DNA of 64,000 nt from Phocaeicola abscessus CCUG 55929 (GTDB taxonomy: Bacteria; Bacteroidota; Bacteroidia; Bacteroidales; Bacteroidaceae), in contig NZ_HE997182.1 of assembly GCF_000312445.1 (NCBI RefSeq), forward strand, positions 780,841 through 844,840, written 5' to 3'. The stretch's first letter is position 1; the number at the start of each line of letters is the position of its first letter. A program made the position numbers and the translations under genes. Shown here one piece after another: positions 1-7,364 of this stretch. Under the pieces are notes generated by a model that searched no databases, was not told where the DNA came from, and saw nothing but the letters and a program-made list of their open reading frames with translations.

Positions 1-2100
1 ATATGATCCCGTCAGGGGAGGTACAGGAAAATCGGAATAAATCAGATCGTAAGAATGTTTCTTATAGACATCTGCCGTTAATGACAATCGGTTTTGCCAT
101 AGAGAAAGGTCAAGACCGAAATTCCACTGTTTTTGTTTTTCCCAAGTGAAATCAGGATTAGGCACGCGCATTGTCCATCCCCAGGTGTTTACAATTTCCT
201 GCCATAAATAAGGATTTACATTTTCATTACCAATTTTTCCCCAAGACACTCTCAGTTTCATGTTGGTGATCGCTCCGGAATTTTTGAGGGAACTTATGAA
301 TTTTTCATTATGAATGTTCCAGCCAAATGAAGCTGAAGGGAAAATGCCCCATTGACGTCCGGGGGCAAATTTGCTGCTTCCGTCCGAACGGAAAGTTGCT
401 TCGAGAAGATAGCGGTCGTCGAACGAATAATTGACTTTAGTGAAAAACGATGCTTTTGTAATTTCCCTGTAATCGGTAAAGACATATGACATGGCTTCTG
501 CACCGGCCACCGCATAGATTTTGTCTTTGTCGTTACGGATATTTTTTTCGAAATTGAGCAAACCTCTTCCTGTCAACTGACTTTGACTGACGTTTTGTTG
601 CGAACCGATATCATTACCCCATGTCGTGACTGGCTTGCCGTCGCCGTCGTAAAACTTATAAGTCAATCTTTTCCATTTACTGGCCGATTTGTCGATCATA
701 TAGGACACGTTTCCTTCGAAGTTCAGATAATCGGTGATATAATAGCGCGGGCGCAAGTTTATGGTACTTTTATCATACATATAATTCCATGTTCCGCCAC
801 GATTGATGAAAGCTACCGGATTCAAATCGTTGTGCAGCATATAGTGTTCGGGAATGGTGTCATTATAGAAAACAGCCTGGGTGGGATTCATTCTCCATGC
901 AATTTGGTATAGGCCGTGTCCGTCGTTGTTTCGCCGAAGACGGTCAACTTTCAGACGGTGCGCATAAAAATCGGCAAGAAGAATGAATCGGTCGGCAATA
1001 TTAATGTTCGTATTGAACCGAACGCTGAATTTGTCCGAACCTTCGATTTTATTTAATCCATTCTCTTTTATGTAATTGAGCATTAAGTTGAAGGTACCCA
1101 CTCCGCCGCCGCCTGATATACTGACAGAAGTATTGTGCGAGGTGGAGGTACGTTCCATGATTTCCTTTATCCAGTCGGTGTTTGGAGTAAGACCTTGCTC
1201 GGCCTTCGAGATATCGTCCTCGGTATAGAGGAGCGGTTGACTTTGTAAGGAAAGTGCCTCGTTCCGCAGGCGCATGAAATCAGCTGAATTTACAAAATCA
1301 GGCAAATGGAGTGGTTGATATACGGCAAACCAACTGTTTACATTTACTGAAAATTGGCTGGCATTTCCCCTGTGGGTTTCGACTACGATTACGCCGTTGG
1401 CGCCTCTTGAACCGTACATGGATGCGGCAGCGGCATCTTTTAATATGCTGATGCTTTTGATTTGATTAGGATCGACATCGGTTAATGGCTGTTCCATACC
1501 ATCGATGATAACCAGTGGCTCGGCATTCTGTAACGTACTGATTCCGCGAATGGATATACTGCCTGGTACAGATCCTGGCAAGTTACTCCCTTTTAGCATG
1601 GTTACGCCGGGAACGGTACCTGAAAAGACGTCTTGTAATTTGATGATCGGACGGCTGATGTTTTTTCCCATATCTACCGATTCGATGGAGGATGCCAAAT
1701 GTTTTCTTTCGATGGAATTATATCCCGTCACCACTACTTCGTCCAGTCTTACGTCGTTTTCAAGCAGTACGACATCTATTTGGGTCTTCCCTTCGGTGGA
1801 TATTTCGTAGTCGCGGAATCCCATATAGCTGAATATGAGGGTGACATTTCCCGATACATTCAGTTCATAGATTCCGTTTTCATCGGTAATGGTACCTATG
1901 TTGGTACCTTTTACAAGTACCGTGACAAACGGAAGAGCCCCTCCCTCCAAATCTGTTACAGTACCATAAACACGCTTTTGTTGCTGTGCAACGTTCGATT
2001 CAGAAGTCGCAAGGATCGTACCAGTGTGATTGTTGGCTCTTACTTTCTCACAAAAAATCAATATTGTGGAAAGCAGCATAAACATGAGGATTCTTTTCAT
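1..2100 (-). CDS. SusC/RagA-type TonB-dependent receptor, C-terminus beyond window
   Basis: The reading frame is open from an ATG at 2100 to the first base of the window, giving about 700 residues with no stop, so the gene is cut by the window edge. After a signal peptide (MKRILMFMLLS...) comes a carboxypeptidase-regulatory-like domain with GTVTDLEGG and FVTVLVKGTNIGTITDENG, then the plug domain with the family signatures LDEVVVTGY and KDAAAASMYGSRGANGVIVV, then the start of the barrel. Such receptors import oligosaccharides or peptides across the outer membrane together with a SusD lipoprotein. Any SusD partner would lie left of the window. It faces away from the relics to its right, and no convincing paired promoter was found in the 220 bases upstream. 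The family call is secure; the substrate is unknown. Confidence 0.93.
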   Translation of the reverse strand, partial: MKRILMFMLLSTILIFCEKVRANNHTGTILATSESNVAQQQKRVYGTVTDLEGGALPFVTVLVKGTNIGTITDENGIYELNVSGNVTLIFSYMGFRDYEISTEGKTQIDVVLLENDVRLDEVVVTGYNSIERKHLASSIESVDMGKNISRPIIKLQDVFSGTVPGVTMLKGSNLPGSVPGSISIRGISTLQNAEPLVIIDGMEQPLTDVDPNQIKSISILKDAAAASMYGSRGANGVIVVETHRGNASQFSVNVNSWFAVYQPLHLPDFVNSADFMRLRNEALSLQSQPLLYTEDDISKAEQGLTPNTDWIKEIMERTSTSHNTSVSISGGGGVGTFNLMLNYIKENGLNKIEGSDKFSVRFNTNINIADRFILLADFYAHRLKVDRLRRNNDGHGLYQIAWRMNPTQAVFYNDTIPEHYMLHNDLNPVAFINRGGTWNYMYDKSTINLRPRYYITDYLNFEGNVSYMIDKSASKWKRLTYKFYDGDGKPVTTWGNDIGSQQNVSQSQLTGRGLLNFEKNIRNDKDKIYAVAGAEAMSYVFTDYREITKASFFTKVNYSFDDRYLLEATFRSDGSSKFAPGRQWGIFPSASFGWNIHNEKFISSLKNSGAITNMKLRVSWGKIGNENVNPYLWQEIVNTWGWTMRVPNPDFTWEKQKQWNFGLDLSLWQNRLSLTADVYKKHSYDLIYSDFPVPPLTGSY

Positions 2101-2323
2101 AATACACCTTTAAAAATATTATATTGTTCGTGATACTATTTTTTCTTTAATGCCCATATATAGTTATGGGTTAGATTTAAGATAATTACAATTTTAAAGG
2201 TAATTTTTTATTTGTGCAAACTTTTTAAGTTAAAAAACAACATAACAATTTTATTTAATTTTTATTTCCCTTCCTCCAATAATATCGCCTCGATTTGTTG
2301 ATTTTTAATGCAATGCCCACATT

Positions 2324-2885
2324 TCAGATGCAGGCACCCGTTCCTTCAAAGGTCACCCGAGGAGTGTAGGTTTTGCCCAGATACGTGGTTGTACCAGCCT
2401 GACAAGAATAGCTGAGTATTTGTGTTTCTACATCATGGAATGTGTACACTTTGATTGCCACCGCATTTCTTGCGGAATTTAGTCCACCAGAAGACCGAAA
2501 GACACAAATCAATAGTTGTCGAATCAAAAGTATAAACGTTATCACCAAGTTTGAAAATATGACTGACACTCTTTTGTCGTGCTTCACCAACCAGGTAGTA
2601 AGCGTATTCCATATGATAGGCTCTATCTTGATTTGCCCCTGCCAAGGATGATTTTGATACGTTCTTTCCCATTCCGAAATGATGACATTTGGAATGATGA
2701 GATTCAAGAGTAACTATCAAATCCTGCAGACTTTCACGGTTGGAAAGTTGGCCGAACACCAAAGCAGGTAGTTGATTCCAACAAGTGAAATGCTTCACAT
2801 ATTTGTCACCATCATACTTGGCAACAATGTGGTTAAACTTACTTCGATTCAAAACGAAGCCAACTGAACGAAAACGTTGAAACAT
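2324..2885 (-). pseudogene. IS4-type (DUF4372) transposase relic, frameshifted and truncated
   Basis: From 2885 the minus strand reads FNHIVAKYDGDKYVKHFTCWNQ, then LVFGQLSNRESLQDLIVTLE and VYTFDSTTIDLCLSVFWWTKFRKK. This is the N-terminal third of IS4-family transposases of the Bacteroides DUF4372 group, including the first catalytic Asp in the DSTTIDL motif. Around 2445 the match moves to another frame (IKVYTFHDVETQI) and then ends, so there is a frameshift followed by loss of the rest of the gene. The start is also unlike intact relatives. No terminal inverted repeats or target duplications were recognised. It is a dead insertion-sequence fragment. The family is fairly sure; the exact IS name is not. 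Confidence 0.8.
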
Positions 2886-3082
2886 ATGCCACGGGATTAA
2901 TCTGACACAAAGCTACAAATTCAAGTCCGTTCGCTCGAAAAACCTCTCTAACTAACTATATTTCAGATATTTCAAAGAACTATTTTAGATTTTAATAGGA
3001 CAGTAATGCGATCACATTTTAAAATATTGTATTTATGGTCAATAAAATGAGATGTTTTTACCTAATAATAGGACTATTTTCT

Positions 3083-3655
3083 TCATTTCTTTAAAAAAAT
3101 AATCCAACGCCAATTCTGTGGATTCGCCTTACCCATGCAGGGTGTATAGAGAAAAAGTTTTACTTTTTGTGAGGGGTTTTCTTTCAGATATTCCCTTGTT
3201 TTCAAGAGCGATTGCACTGTATGCCAGGCGTTAAAATAGTCCAGGTCAAGGTTTTGGGGATTGAATATTTTCTCAAATCCATTGACAGGAGATACAAAGT
3301 CCTGTGTTATCTGCGCCTTGAACATGTTAGCCGGGAGTAAATCTTTCGGATATATCATTTCACCCACTTTATCTGAATAAATAGTCCCTTCAAATAAAGT
3401 TTCACCTAACTCTTTGTATTTTATCCTAATATAACCCCAATTATCTGCGAACTTGTATTCTGTTTCTATTGTAAAATCATCAGATTGTTGCGAGAATACA
3501 AATTCTAAACCGCCTTCAAAAGTATTCGTAAGATAATCTACCTTCAAAAGAAGAACTTGGTCGAGCGCTTTGTCTTTCTTTTCTGAAAAATGGTTTTCCG
3601 AATGGCATGACCATAACAATGGAATAAAAGACAGGATTAAAAGATTCGTTTTCAT
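3083..3655 (-). CDS. Hypothetical lipoprotein, 190 residues
   Basis: The protein starts MKTNLLILSFIPLLWSC, a signal peptide ending in a lipobox with the lipidated Cys at residue 16, followed by a charged linker. The mature part is rich in beta-forming and aromatic residues (FEGGLEFVFSQQSDDFTIETEYKFADNWGYIRIKYKELGETLFEG) and has no motif I recognise. Bacteroidales place many such lipoproteins on the outer membrane. It stands alone, downstream of the split subtilase on the same strand with a gap of about 200 bases, so co-transcription is possible but not shown. Expression of a protein is likely given the clean signal peptide and length; no function is proposed. Confidence 0.65.
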   Translation of the reverse strand: MKTNLLILSFIPLLWSCHSENHFSEKKDKALDQVLLLKVDYLTNTFEGGLEFVFSQQSDDFTIETEYKFADNWGYIRIKYKELGETLFEGTIYSDKVGEMIYPKDLLPANMFKAQITQDFVSPVNGFEKIFNPQNLDLDYFNAWHTVQSLLKTREYLKENPSQKVKLFLYTPCMGKANPQNWRWIIFLKK

Positions 3656-3859
3656 AGAATTGTATTTTTATTAATGAATAAAGTGTGGTAAATATGTGTC
3701 TGAAAAATATATCATTAAAAGCGTATGAGCAAATATCTTGTGAATTATTTTAACTGTATTTTTGGGATAGACATCCTGTCTAAAAATAAGGCCGAATTTT
3801 TAATTCTAAGTATAGTTAACTTCTGTTTTGAGACATCATTCTTGTAAAATTAGTTAGTT

Positions 3860-5098
3860 CTAATATGAGATATTCATTGTCGAACCGGAATTTACAGTAA
3901 AAGGTGGATCAATAGTAATTTGGTTTACAAAATTAAAAGACAGAAGAGAACTATTTGTTACAGTAAAATTCCGGGCATATATTTCCCATCCAGAAACTGA
4001 CTGATTGGATGTAACTGTCTGATCTATGAAGTTTACAATACCGCCAGACACTTGTGAAACTGCGGCGAATGCGTTGAGTAAACCATAACCCATTTCATTG
4101 TTCCATGTGCCATTATTCCTGCCTGATGTAGTGACATAAGAATATCCACCAACCTTTTGTGCAGTACTCTCAATAATTCTTACAACTTCAGATCCTGTGA
4201 GGTTCGGATTAATTGAGAGCATCAAAGCAGCCACCGCACTTGCATGAGGAGTTGCCATAGACGTGCCACTCATGTTTCCCGTAGCATTATTAGGGAGAGT
4301 TGACAATATATTTTCTCCCGGTGCTACTACATCGAGACTAGAACCGTAAGAAGAAAAACTGGCTCTTCTATCAGAAGTATTTGTTGCTCCTACTACCAAT
4401 AATCTAGAATCAAAAGATGCTGGATAATCTACACCATTTCTGTTTGCATTTCCTGCTGCAAAAAGCACCACACACCCTCTCCCGTTTCTTCCAGAAGTTA
4501 TTGCAGATCGAATAGCATCTTCTAGTACGGTACTATGTAAATCCTCATAAAATGCGCCTCCTTGATCACCCCATGAGTTATTTATAACCGCTGCTCCATT
4601 ATTTTGAGCATAACTAATTCCAGTTGCAAGCTGACTACTTATAGTCGGGGTTACACTTAAATTGTGGCTTATAGATAACATGGTTGTTTGAGGGGCAACA
4701 CCAGCTATTTGAATGCTATTATGATTTGCCCCTATAATTCCACCAACGTGTGTACCATGATTTCCACGGACAACAGAAGGAGAACTTCCATTGATGATAT
4801 CATAGGATACAGTACTATAGTTGTTTGCAAACTCTTGATGGTTTCTATCTATACCTTGATCTAAAACGGCTACTATTACATTAGAACTACCTTTGGTAAT
4901 TTGCCACGCACTACAAGCATTAACTTTTTCTAATCCCCACTGGGCAGCTTCGTTTGGCTCAGTAGTGCATAGACTGGGTTTAAAATCAAACATAAATGCC
5001 GGGTCTACCTCTTCAAACATCCCTGTTTCGTAGAACAAATTAGACATGGCTAATCCGTGAGACGTAGTTGGAGATCTTAATAGATACCAATTAGGCAT
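3860..5098 (-). CDS. Subtilisin-like serine protease (S8), catalytic part of a frame-split gene
   Basis: The S8 triad is complete: Asp80 in VIVAVLDQGID, His114 in NHGTHVGG and Ser280 in SGTSMATPHASAVA, with the oxyanion Asn217 in LFAAGN. About 60 C-terminal residues after the protease fold look like a small beta domain; no type IX sorting domain was seen. The ATG at 5098 is internal. The same frame stays open upstream to a TGA at 5197-5195 and encodes continuous prodomain sequence (KIKSSEDSQLLKEIAAEF, then KEVEYMPNWYLL), with no start or signal peptide of its own. The missing N-terminus is the gene at 5182-5652 in the neighbouring frame, separated by a run of seven T. The intact protein would be a secreted lipoprotein protease of roughly 590 residues. 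As it stands it is either joined by -1 frameshifting, phase-variable, or a pseudogene. Confidence 0.85.
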   Translation of the reverse strand: MPNWYLLRSPTTSHGLAMSNLFYETGMFEEVDPAFMFDFKPSLCTTEPNEAAQWGLEKVNACSAWQITKGSSNVIVAVLDQGIDRNHQEFANNYSTVSYDIINGSSPSVVRGNHGTHVGGIIGANHNSIQIAGVAPQTTMLSISHNLSVTPTISSQLATGISYAQNNGAAVINNSWGDQGGAFYEDLHSTVLEDAIRSAITSGRNGRGCVVLFAAGNANRNGVDYPASFDSRLLVVGATNTSDRRASFSSYGSSLDVVAPGENILSTLPNNATGNMSGTSMATPHASAVAALMLSINPNLTGSEVVRIIESTAQKVGGYSYVTTSGRNNGTWNNEMGYGLLNAFAAVSQVSGGIVNFIDQTVTSNQSVSGWEIYARNFTVTNSSLLSFNFVNQITIDPPFTVNSGSTMNISY

Positions 5099-5181
5099 AT
5101 ATTCAACCTCTTTTATTATTTCCGCTGAAAATTCGGCAGCAATTTCTTTCAGTAATTGTGAATCTTCGGAAGATTTAATTT

Positions 5182-5652
5182 TTATGTAAAAAAATCACTC
5201 GTAGAAATGTAATCCTGGCTATTAACCCCAAATACAGGTGCGACGTAAATATTTTCACTTTTTAATTCAGAGGCTAAATAGGAAGCATTAATAGTGGAAG
5301 ATATAGATGCTTTTTTTTCATCAATCTCTACAATTTTCCAAAAGGTTTTTTCCTGTTCATATGAATGACCCCTCTTTAAACTTGAGGTGATGGATATTGT
5401 CTTTGAATTAAATTGAACAGATTCAAGAATAGAACTATCCGTTGATGATATGTAATATAAATTTTTCACCGGAGTAATTTCTATTTGTTGCCCTTGATAC
5501 CAGTAATAATCGGATATAACCGATGATCTGGTCAAGGCATTTATATTATCAATTTCTGTAAGATCATCATTGGTTAATTGATTTTCATCGGTGCATCCAA
5601 TAATTAATATAGGGAAAATTGATAAAAAGGCGATAATATATTTTAAATTCAT
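5182..5652 (-). CDS. Lipoprotein prodomain of the split subtilase
   Basis: A 156-residue protein starting with a signal peptide and lipobox (FPILIIGC, Cys at residue 20), followed by an Asp/Asn-rich linker and a domain ending IYVAPVFGVNSQDYISTSDFFT. Subtilases of Bacteroidetes commonly carry such a lipoprotein leader ahead of an inhibitor-like prodomain. The reading stops at TAA 5184-5182 just after a T7 run (5194-5188). Slipping back one base there continues directly into the subtilase frame as DFFYIKIKSSEDSQ, which is what an uninterrupted family member would read. It is therefore best seen as exon-like half of one gene rather than an independent lipoprotein. Confidence 0.75.
   Translation of the reverse strand: MNLKYIIAFLSIFPILIIGCTDENQLTNDDLTEIDNINALTRSSVISDYYWYQGQQIEITPVKNLYYISSTDSSILESVQFNSKTISITSSLKRGHSYEQEKTFWKIVEIDEKKASISSTINASYLASELKSENIYVAPVFGVNSQDYISTSDFFT
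5188..5196 (-). other. Candidate -1 frameshift site or phase-variable homopolymer (T7)
   Basis: On the minus strand the codons are GAT TTT TTT ACA TAA. The heptamer T TTT TTT sits in the correct phase for a canonical X XXY YYZ -1 slippery site, ten bases before the upstream stop. One backward slip, or one added T, fuses the prodomain to the protease. A single-base indel during decay or a sequencing error in the homopolymer would look identical. Confidence 0.6.
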
Positions 5653-5735
5653 AGTCTTTCTTTTAATTACGTAAAATATTTTTTATATACGCCTTCCTCT
5701 TCACATGGAAAGAGGAGGAGGATTCTTCCCACACT

Positions 5736-6368
5736 TTACTTTCTAGTAGATTTCAATTCTTCGATTTCTGCTTTAAGTTCATGGATTGATTCAATTAAAA
5801 CAGGTATCAAAGCCGTATAATTGATCAGTTTTTTGCCTTCATCATCTGTAAGAACAATCTCAGGTAAGATCCTTTCAACTTCTTGTGCTAATAATCCAAG
5901 TTCCTTGCCACTCCCCCCCGTTCTAAAAGGAGTTCTACTGTCCTTATTGATAAAATCATAAGTAACAGGGCGTAACTTTAAAATGGTGCTTAACCCATTG
6001 GAAACATTTGAAATGTTTGTTTTCGCACGTGCATCAGAATAATTGTAAATATTTGATACTTGAATCGCATTAAAAGTAGAAGTTCCACTATTATAAAAAA
6101 CTACCTGATTATAATGACTTGCAATACGTGTAGCAGCCGAGTTTGTGTCTATTTGAAGAAAGTGTCCACTCGTTGGGCCATTAATCCAAATATTTCCTCG
6201 TAAAGTAAGATCATAATTTTTTGTTCCATCATGATAAGTTGATGTGTTCCCAAAGGTTAAAAATCCATTGGAGCGATAATTGATTTGTGCATCAATCGTA
6301 AATGCTGGTGAAGAGAAAATAATATTCAAGAGCAAAATTCGTAGCTGGTAGAAATTTAATGTTTTCAT
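5736..6368 (-). CDS. Secreted protein with S74 intramolecular chaperone domain
   Basis: A 210-residue protein with a signal peptide (MKTLNFYQLRILLLNIIFSSPAFTIDA in outline) and a short beta-rich middle. The C-terminal 100 residues match the peptidase S74/endosialidase-type chaperone domain: SDARAKTNI with the Ser111-Lys116 dyad, LKLRPVTYDF, GLLAQEVERILPEIV, then a C-terminal helix (LIESIHELKAEIEELKS) suited to trimerisation. These domains assist folding of trimeric beta-helical fibres and then cleave themselves off by Ser-Lys chemistry. In Bacteroidetes they also occur on cell-surface proteins rather than phage tails. Here the passenger is very short (about 80 residues). No phage genes lie nearby. 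The domain call is good; the role is unknown. Confidence 0.8.
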   Translation of the reverse strand: MKTLNFYQLRILLLNIIFSSPAFTIDAQINYRSNGFLTFGNTSTYHDGTKNYDLTLRGNIWINGPTSGHFLQIDTNSAATRIASHYNQVVFYNSGTSTFNAIQVSNIYNYSDARAKTNISNVSNGLSTILKLRPVTYDFINKDSRTPFRTGGSGKELGLLAQEVERILPEIVLTDDEGKKLINYTALIPVLIESIHELKAEIEELKSTRK

Positions 6369-6558
6369 AACTTTTTTAGTTAAAGGTCGTTTATAAAAGA
6401 AATTCTGAACTACATAATATCAATAAATCCTTTTTGTTGTGCAATATACTTACTTTTTTACAAAATTGGAGCTATATATTTGATTATTCCTTGGTTAATA
6501 TTTGTTAATCCGCTGATTTTATATATTTATATATATTGTTGTTTATGAGGTTTTTCTA

Positions 6559-6891
6559 TTACAAAAAGACTGTTAAGGCATGTTTCTTACCTGAAAGAAA
6601 CCTTGTAACATGTAATTTATCCATCAGCCATGCGATAGCCAAACAGCCCGAAAGAGTCGAAGTGACAGCGACACACATAAACAATATCCCATGGGGCTCA
6701 AACGAAAATAATGGAATAAGTTGTTTGGATAACAGTGTAAATATCGGAGAAAATAAAAGAATTATGAGCGTGTTGCGTCCGATAAAACTATTAATAAATT
6801 TTATTTTTGAGGGGATGTAGGAATATACTGATAGTAAAAAACTTATAGTTAAGTATGTAATAAAATAATCTCGGTAAGTTCTTCCTGCCAC
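6559..6891 (-). pseudogene. C-terminal fragment of a membrane acyltransferase (acyltransferase-3 type)
   Basis: The 110 residues contain about three hydrophobic helices and the sequence FIGRNTLIILLFSPIFTL, resembling the last membrane segments of acyltransferase-3/fucose O-acetylase-like enzymes, which normally have around ten membrane segments over 330 or more residues. The only start is a GTG a few codons after an in-frame stop (TAA near 6903), so the N-terminal two thirds are missing. It sits among other relics. Most likely a decayed gene from a polysaccharide-modification locus. The family assignment rests on the general pattern and is moderate. Confidence 0.5.
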
Positions 6892-7013
6892 AGCAAGCTT
6901 TTATCGGCGTCTAATCCCGGCATGGCCATCATACTGAAAATATCTTTTTACCTTCCTTTATTTTCAGATTGATTGCCGCATATCATTGGAAAATTGTGTT
7001 TTTTCCAATGCTT

Positions 7014-7129
7014 TTATGGGTTGTGGTTCTCGAGAACTTGCCCGCTTCCCTTCACATAGATACCGGGTATTTTCTTCAGCACATCGTCGATTCCCCTTGC
7101 TTTCAAATCGACTTTTATAAAGGCACATG
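7014..7129 (-). pseudogene. Possible TonB-receptor plug relic
   Basis: About 36 codons on the minus strand end in VDLKARGIDDVLKKIPGI, followed by YVKGSGQV and a stop at 7016-7014. The pattern DVLKKIPGIxVxxSGQV is typical of the start of plug domains in TonB-dependent outer-membrane receptors. Nothing before or after extends the match, and it stops abruptly. It is read as a gene scrap. It may be chance, so confidence is low. Confidence 0.35.
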
Positions 7130-7255
7130 ATTTAATAAATTTAAGTATGTAATGAAAATATTTGATTAAATCGGAGGGTTCCGTCAAATAAAATGTTAAA
7201 ATTTGAAGTGCAGAGTAAAAAAATGAGCGAAATGGAGGATTTCTTGGAAAAGCAT

Positions 7256-7263
7256 TATCTTTG
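7256..7263 (+). promoter_or_regulatory. Candidate -7 element of the SusC operon
   Basis: TATCTTTG matches the Bacteroidetes -7 consensus TAnnTTTG about 100 bases before the SusC start at 7365. No TTTG lies 19-21 bases upstream, so the -33 element is weak or an ECF-type factor is used. The long leader would allow post-transcriptional control. Confidence 0.4.
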
Positions 7264-7364
7264 TTTTCCGGATGATTGCATAAATTTCTGCTCGATTTGG
7301 ATAAAATCAGGTGCAATGATATGAAATCGATCATGCAGTAATAATAACTTTAATCACGAATTGT

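What the first reader, a model, noticed from the sequence alone, without database searches (positions are those of the whole stretch)
5182..5196. Subtilase lipoprotein split at a canonical -1 slippery heptamer
The lipoprotein prodomain ends 10 bases after T TTT TTT in slippery phase, and a single backward slip joins it seamlessly to the prodomain remnant and full S8 triad. Both halves are otherwise intact, with no other stop or damage, which is unusual for a simple pseudogene. It could be programmed frameshifting, phase variation of a surface protease by T7/T8 length change, or a young mutation.
Basis: partly seen in the sequence, partly recalled or inferred. Interest (0 to 1): 0.72.

Follow-up and report, generated by a model that had tools for sequence, protein, structure and literature searches.

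The report
Surface protease gene broken by frameshift
A surface-protease gene in a human-associated bacterium is split by a frameshift at a run of seven T's; near relatives carry the gene whole or broken at other places, so this looks like ordinary gene decay and not a programmed genetic trick.

Summary
On the minus strand a 156-aa lipoprotein/prodomain ORF (5182-5652) ends just after T TTT TTT (5188-5194), and the -1 frame continues into an S8 subtilase ORF (3860-5098). A 99%-identical, naturally fused 597-aa relative exists, and other near relatives are broken or rearranged in other ways. The heptamer phase is weak evidence: fused close relatives encode Phe-Phe-Tyr there, and ORF1 holds six in-phase X_XXY_YYZ heptamers in 156 codons. 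No unusual downstream RNA structure (z = 0.08), no SD-like motif in the tested interval, and 0 of 38 distant homologous DNA segments have the seven-T run. The residue before the run is Asp here and Glu in the 45 closest in-frame rows listed, so one length difference at the 5' edge of the run explains the break better than a T7/T8 change. The gene sits in an AT-rich island with a truncated IS4 transposase and an acyltransferase remnant. Best reading: a recently broken, strain-variable protease gene. A homopolymer undercall and leaky slippage (a "savior indel") are not excluded. No DNA of the other alleles was available; the allele comparison is at protein level.

The parts
5182..5652 (-). ORF1: lipoprotein signal plus most of the prodomain, 156 aa, ending after the T7 run
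   Evidence: no Pfam hit at E 0.1 or NCBIfam hit at E 0.01; aligned to the N-terminus of fused S8 relatives
5188..5194 (-). T7 run, 0-frame phase T TTT TTT; the frame break is at or directly beside it
5099..5194 (-). -1-frame open stretch between the run and ORF2's first start codon (remainder of the prodomain); no unusual RNA structure
   Evidence: the matching stretch of fused relatives is seen
3860..5098 (-). ORF2: S8 subtilase catalytic domain, 412 aa, no signal peptide of its own (as read from the sequence)
   Evidence: PF00082, 175.9 bits; 99% identical to P0006
5736..6368 (-). upstream neighbour, Peptidase_S74 (chaperone of endosialidase) protein, 210 aa; its start is fused to the subtilase prodomain in the decayed relative P0127
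   Evidence: PF13884, 56.6 bits; P0127
3083..3655 (-). downstream neighbour, 190-aa lipoprotein-like ORF without known family
2400..3008 (-). truncated IS4-family transposase remnant
   Evidence: ORF 2433-2885 hits IS4 model positions 5-140 of 332, 64.4 bits under cutoff 115; 84-86% DNA identity in the 20 listed of 27 plasmid records, matching only 2-621 of the 1318-bp record
6559..6891 (-). C-terminal remnant of an acyltransferase (Acyl_transf_3)
   Evidence: profile 246-326 of 326, 22.7 bits under cutoff 31

Best explanation
A once intact S8-subtilase lipoprotein gene was broken by a single small indel at the 5' edge of a seven-T run in the prodomain coding region. As it stands the gene gives a 156-aa lipoprotein fragment of the prodomain; the catalytic part has no signal peptide and an incomplete prodomain, so it is probably neither exported nor matured (inferred). 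The gene is strain-variable: whole copies and several differently broken copies exist in near-identical or closely related bacteria (shown at protein level). The slippery-looking heptamer is there because the protein encodes Phe-Phe-Tyr at this place, and the break put it in slippery phase (inferred). Relaxed selection on a foreign-looking, AT-rich island is the inferred cause.
For: Fused 597-aa P0006, 99% identical to ORF2, 51 member sequences, covering ORF1 too. Differently broken relatives: P0002 185 aa (97%, 11 members, named Phocaeicola abscessus), P0003 167 aa (73%), P0051 273 aa (99% over 66% of ORF2, 8 members), P0127 351 aa (88% over 43% of the 200-residue query; hybrid with the S74 gene, catalytic core missing), P0077/P0078 (3' half behind an unrelated N-terminus). 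The residue before the run is Glu in 52 of 57 fused proteins of A3 and Asp in 5, all five only 42-44% identical; among 110 session proteins of 480 aa or more it is E 81, D 19, N 8, G 1, gap 1, and the 45 closest rows printed all have E. Six in-phase heptamers in ORF1. No unusual RNA structure. Remnants beside it and low GC: 0.32-0.41 in 2-7 kb against mostly 0.43-0.55 elsewhere, with exceptions at 51-52 kb (0.36) and 61-63 kb (0.40-0.42). Of the 60 other genomes of the genus examined, one matches by DNA, over 41 bases only; by protein one of 35 congeners (G020) has a 42% relative.
Against: Both halves are otherwise undamaged, so there is no second lesion to prove decay. The same split end recurs in P0001 (one residue different, 14,185-base contig; the window's scaffold has 1,004,446 bases), so the split form seems to be in more than one record; the tool's '-' in the sources column leaves its independence open. 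P0015 (70% identity, 15 members) is 412 aa and starts at the same internal methionine, which could be a recurrent split, a contig edge or a gene-calling choice. P0127 has Asp before the run and stays in frame. The allele comparison has no DNA behind it.
Confidence: 0.8

Rival explanations
1. Sequencing or assembly error: the strain is whole and the run was undercalled.
For: The published type-strain genome of the nearest named species was a 454-only assembly (PMC4062633, part 1 of 2 of the text read), a method known (recalled) for homopolymer errors; the window's assembly is scaffolded with N gaps, has a similar size (2,536,876 against 2,530,616 bases) and an unexplained completeness of 85.47%.
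Against: P0001 ends at the same place with one residue different. A 400-kb sample of the assembly has ORF lengths like a one-contig congener (mean 383 against 387 aa) and 1 against 3 frameshift-like pairs. An undercalled longer run would also need the Glu-to-Asp change. Which assembly the window comes from was not established.
Confidence: 0.09
2. Phase variation of a surface protease by run-length change.
For: Surface protein, run of 7, whole and split forms both exist. P0127, a near relative, also has Asp before the run and stays in frame.
Against: The Asp/Glu pattern fits an edge lesion with the run unchanged. A longer A8 run in the same ORF is in frame here. P0002 and P0003 pass this run in frame and break further on.
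Confidence: 0.06
3. Programmed or leaky -1 ribosomal frameshifting makes a controlled low amount of full-length protease.
For: U_UUU_UUU in slippery phase, -1 frame reaches the full catalytic domain. Rescue of an indel by low-level slippage is known ('savior' indel, passages of PMC5009743).
Against: No unusual structure, the one SD-like motif starts 22 nt before the run (the 6-17 nt criterion is from passages of PMC4066793), run absent in 38 of 38 distant segments, fused near relatives. U_UUU_UUU is much less shift-prone than A_AAA_AAG in E. coli (passage of PMC5009743).
Confidence: 0.04
4. The split is functional: prodomain and protease are made as two separate proteins.
For: P0015 is exactly a 412-aa form in another lineage.
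Against: The break lies inside the prodomain and leaves ORF2 without a signal peptide; 110 of the 117 session proteins that cover the junction are 480 aa or longer, although that count cannot show split genes as one record.
Confidence: 0.01

Closest known systems
Frameshifted singleton genes / young pseudogenes as classified by GeneTack (PMC3711429, passages seen)
   Same: frame transition not conserved, near relatives fused
   Different: here several differently broken near relatives are visible
Programmed -1 frameshift genes (dnaX, IS3/IS911 type; as described in passages of PMC4066793 and PMC3711429)
   Same: X_XXY_YYZ heptamer in phase just before a stop
   Different: no stimulator in the ranges tested, no conserved site, weaker heptamer type
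Bacteroidota S8 subtilase lipoproteins, e.g. P0009, S8 family peptidase of Proteiniphilum sp. UBA7639 (80% identity over ORF2)
   Same: same domain order and prodomain
   Different: whole gene
Dentilisin PrtP (NF033595)
   Same: S8 serine protease; an oral-spirochaete protease by recall
   Different: 119.9 bits, far below the family cutoff of 300

Membership tests
Subtilase family S8 (PF00082) | profile match above curated cutoff | tested here: met
   175.9 bits against 21.8
Subtilase family S8 (PF00082) | Asp/His/Ser triad | tested here: met
   D265, H299, S465 of P0006 are invariant in the 57-row A3 and ORF2 differs from P0006 only at 313, 331, 375, 384; that these are the triad is assigned from recalled motifs
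Dentilisin PrtP (NF033595) | score above family cutoff | tested here: not met
   119.9 against 300, for the fused relative P0006
Programmed -1 frameshift gene | slippery heptamer in 0-frame phase before the 0-frame stop | tested here: met
Programmed -1 frameshift gene | frame transition and motif conserved in homologues | tested here: not met
   0 of 38 aligned DNA segments that span the junction (22-40% identity, from 65 loci examined) have the run; 110 of 117 session proteins covering the junction are 480 aa or longer
Programmed -1 frameshift gene | downstream stimulatory structure | tested here: not met
   -9.1 kcal/mol, z 0.08, 101 of 200 shuffles fold as well (89 nt, pseudoknots not modelled)
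Programmed -1 frameshift gene | SD-like stimulator 6-17 nt upstream | tested here: not met
   in the 40 nt upstream only AGGA, starting 22 nt before the run
Programmed -1 frameshift gene | fused product made | not testable with these tools
   no expression data
Homopolymer contingency (phase-variable) locus | alleles of one species differing in run length | tested here: inconclusive
   protein-level pattern argues for an edge lesion; no allele DNA; P0127 points the other way
Homopolymer contingency (phase-variable) locus | on/off switching within a strain | not testable with these tools
   no reads

The most novel reading that the evidence does not exclude
The split allele is kept because slippage at the seven-T run still makes a trickle of full-length protease, i.e. 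a natural 'savior indel' that turns a surface protease down without losing it, in bacteria where several alleles break the same gene by different routes. (This can be true together with the young-lesion reading, so its odds overlap with those above.)
Probability: 0.06. Interest if true: 0.45.

Novelty: new member of a known kind. Interest (0 to 1): 0.16.

Why it matters
It is one more strain-variable broken surface-protease gene, and a clear case of a convincing slippery site that can arise as a by-product of a lesion beside a coding homopolymer. That is a useful caution for scans that call recoding from a heptamer and a nearby stop. If the leaky reading held, it would be a natural bacterial example of tuning a surface protease by slippage.

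Tried and rejected
Conserved recoding site: rejected (38 junction-spanning segments from 65 loci examined; copies from the window's own genome dropped out because their alignment breaks there). RNA structure and Rfam elements: none. Viral and plasmid carriers of close copies: 2 viral loci at 39%, 182 plasmid records, all under 60% identity. Error-riddled assembly: a first Viterbi frame-switch test (59 switches in 464 kb of the window's genome against 34 in 400 kb of G011, before filtering) did not discriminate, because its start-codon filter left 0 in both; it was replaced. Families of G299 and G246, searched in the hope of close fused relatives with DNA: 1 of 3 genomes each, at 45% and 44% identity. 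Genome-contig scan with P0006: 45 loci, none a close full-length relative; the highest identities were in partial matches. Defence-system role: only weak subtilase models, 78.8 and 18.4 bits. Dentilisin membership: rejected. Literature; the one search for phase variation of a Bacteroides subtilisin-like lipoprotein by homopolymers held 0 papers; no wider claim of absence from print is made.

Full report
What is there. On the minus strand a 156-aa ORF (5182-5652) with a lipoprotein-type start (lipobox assigned from recall; the Cys is nearly invariant in A3) runs into T TTT TTT at 5188-5194, one more sense codon and TAA. The -1 frame opens directly at the run and continues to a 412-aa ORF (3860-5098) that is an S8 subtilase domain (PF00082, 175.9 bits). 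The two frames share only 12 nt.

Is the heptamer special? In-phase X_XXY_YYZ heptamers are frequent here: 6 in the 156 codons of ORF1, including an in-phase A_AAA_AAA in an A8 run. The window holds 17 A/T runs of 7 or more, 4 of them in the 5.2-kb AT-rich island 2100-7330. The 89 nt downstream fold no better than shuffles (z 0.08, 101 of 200 as good). The only SD-like motif in the 40 nt upstream is AGGA, starting 22 nt before the run, outside the 6-17 nt interval used in PMC4066793 (passages seen). Of 65 loci examined, 38 segments span the junction and none has the run; these are distant relatives (22-40% identity in that query stretch). PMC5009743 (passages) says that in E. [quoted passage not shown]

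Relatives. The search with ORF2 (the 8000 candidates sharing most words were scored, 4773 passed, 120 listed) gives a fused 597-aa protein, P0006, 99% identical, 51 member sequences. ORF1 and ORF2 differ from it at 7 residues: 143, 153 and 156 in ORF1 (the last being the out-of-frame codon) and four in ORF2 (the stretch between the ORFs was not part of that count). The search with ORF1 (5 proteins; only lengths 0.55-1.75 times 156 aa are candidates, so it selects short products) gives P0001 with the same end and one residue different; P0002 (185 aa, named Phocaeicola abscessus, 11 members), which passes this junction in frame and ends about 30 residues later; P0003 (167 aa, 73%), which also passes it and ends about a dozen residues later; P0004 (242 aa, on an 821-base contig), in frame here; and P0005 (106 aa, chimeric). 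Further broken or rearranged relatives are P0051 (273 aa), P0127 (351 aa; S74-gene start fused to the subtilase prodomain, catalytic core missing), P0077 and P0078 (the 3' half behind an unrelated N-terminus), P0080 and P0126 (truncated). P0015 is a 412-aa form at 70% that starts at the same internal Met as ORF2. So the family is broken often and in several ways, although some of these short forms may be contig ends or assembly chimeras, which I could not check.

Where the lesion is. Immediately before the run the split copies (window, P0001) have Asp. The 45 closest rows printed all have Glu (P0006 itself included); among the 110 session proteins of 480 aa or more the counts are E 81, D 19, N 8, G 1, gap 1. 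In the 57-row A3 it is E 52, D 5, and the five are 42-44% relatives. The rest of the motif in the closest relatives is Phe-Phe-Tyr. One length difference at the 5' edge of the run gives the Asp and the frame break together and leaves the run unchanged; a change of run length needs a second change. Against this: P0127 has Asp too and remains in frame, so an Asp-bearing in-frame ancestor cannot be excluded, and I had no allele DNA. If the edge reading is right, the slippery phase is automatic and carries no independent weight.

Sequence quality. In 400 kb of the same assembly the ORFs of 100 aa or more average 383 aa (303 ORFs) against 387 (297 ORFs) in the one-contig congener G011, with 1 against 3 frameshift-like pairs. 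The assembly has N gaps (1174 N in the 400-kb sample, none in the window) and a listed completeness of 85.47%, unexplained. The type strain of P. abscessus was sequenced by 454 only (PMC4062633, part 1 of 2 read). I could not establish whether the window is that assembly, so an undercalled homopolymer stays a live rival at about 9%.

Surroundings. The island has GC 0.32-0.41 between 2 and 7 kb, against mostly 0.43-0.55 elsewhere in the window, with lower stretches at 51-52 kb (0.36) and 61-63 kb (0.40-0.42). It holds a truncated IS4 transposase, a C-terminal acyltransferase remnant, an S74 protein and an unassigned lipoprotein-like ORF. In the genus 2 of 61 genomes match the locus by DNA, the window's own and one 41-base match; by protein 5 of 60 sampled relatives match ORF2 at E 1e-30, the window's own included, one of them (G020, 42%) in the genus; in the order sample 10 of 393 match the fused relative at E 1e-60 or better, the window's own included. 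Fused relatives at 77-80% identity, one named Proteiniphilum sp. UBA7639, suggest acquisition from outside the genus (inference).

Verdict. Best supported is a recent loss-of-frame lesion in a strain-variable, probably dispensable surface-protease gene (0.80). Undercall 0.09, run-length phase variation 0.06, programmed or leaky frameshifting 0.04, functional split 0.01. Shown: the split, the fused and differently broken relatives (protein level), absence of stimulators in the tested ranges. Inferred: that ORF2 is not exported or active, relaxed selection, the position of the lesion.

Noticed in passing
window 2400-3008 (-): Truncated IS4-family transposase remnant, 84-86% identical to copies in the 20 listed of 27 Bacteroides, Parabacteroides and Phocaeicola plasmid records (3 records not listed lie at 90-95%).
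   Followed up: partly
window 6559-6891 (-): C-terminal fragment of an Acyl_transf_3 protein, sub-cutoff score.
   Followed up: partly
P0077, P0078 and P0051 (proteins): The subtilase 3' half begins at the same place (around ...APQTT) in the truncated P0051 (99% to ORF2, organism not named) and in P0077/P0078 (P0078 named Proteiniphilum), where it follows an unrelated N-terminus; perhaps an insertion or recombination breakpoint. P0126 ends near the same place.
   Followed up: no
L003 (G036): A distant S8 relative in an 836-aa frame with one TGA inside the matched stretch.
   Followed up: no
L030; L106: Two subtilase matches in one goat-rumen Paludibacteraceae locus, and two S8 genes on a Prevotella nigrescens plasmid.
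   Followed up: no
window 5311-5318 (-): An A8 run in ORF1 (minus strand), in frame here, longer than the T7 run and so a likelier place for slippage if there is any.
   Followed up: partly
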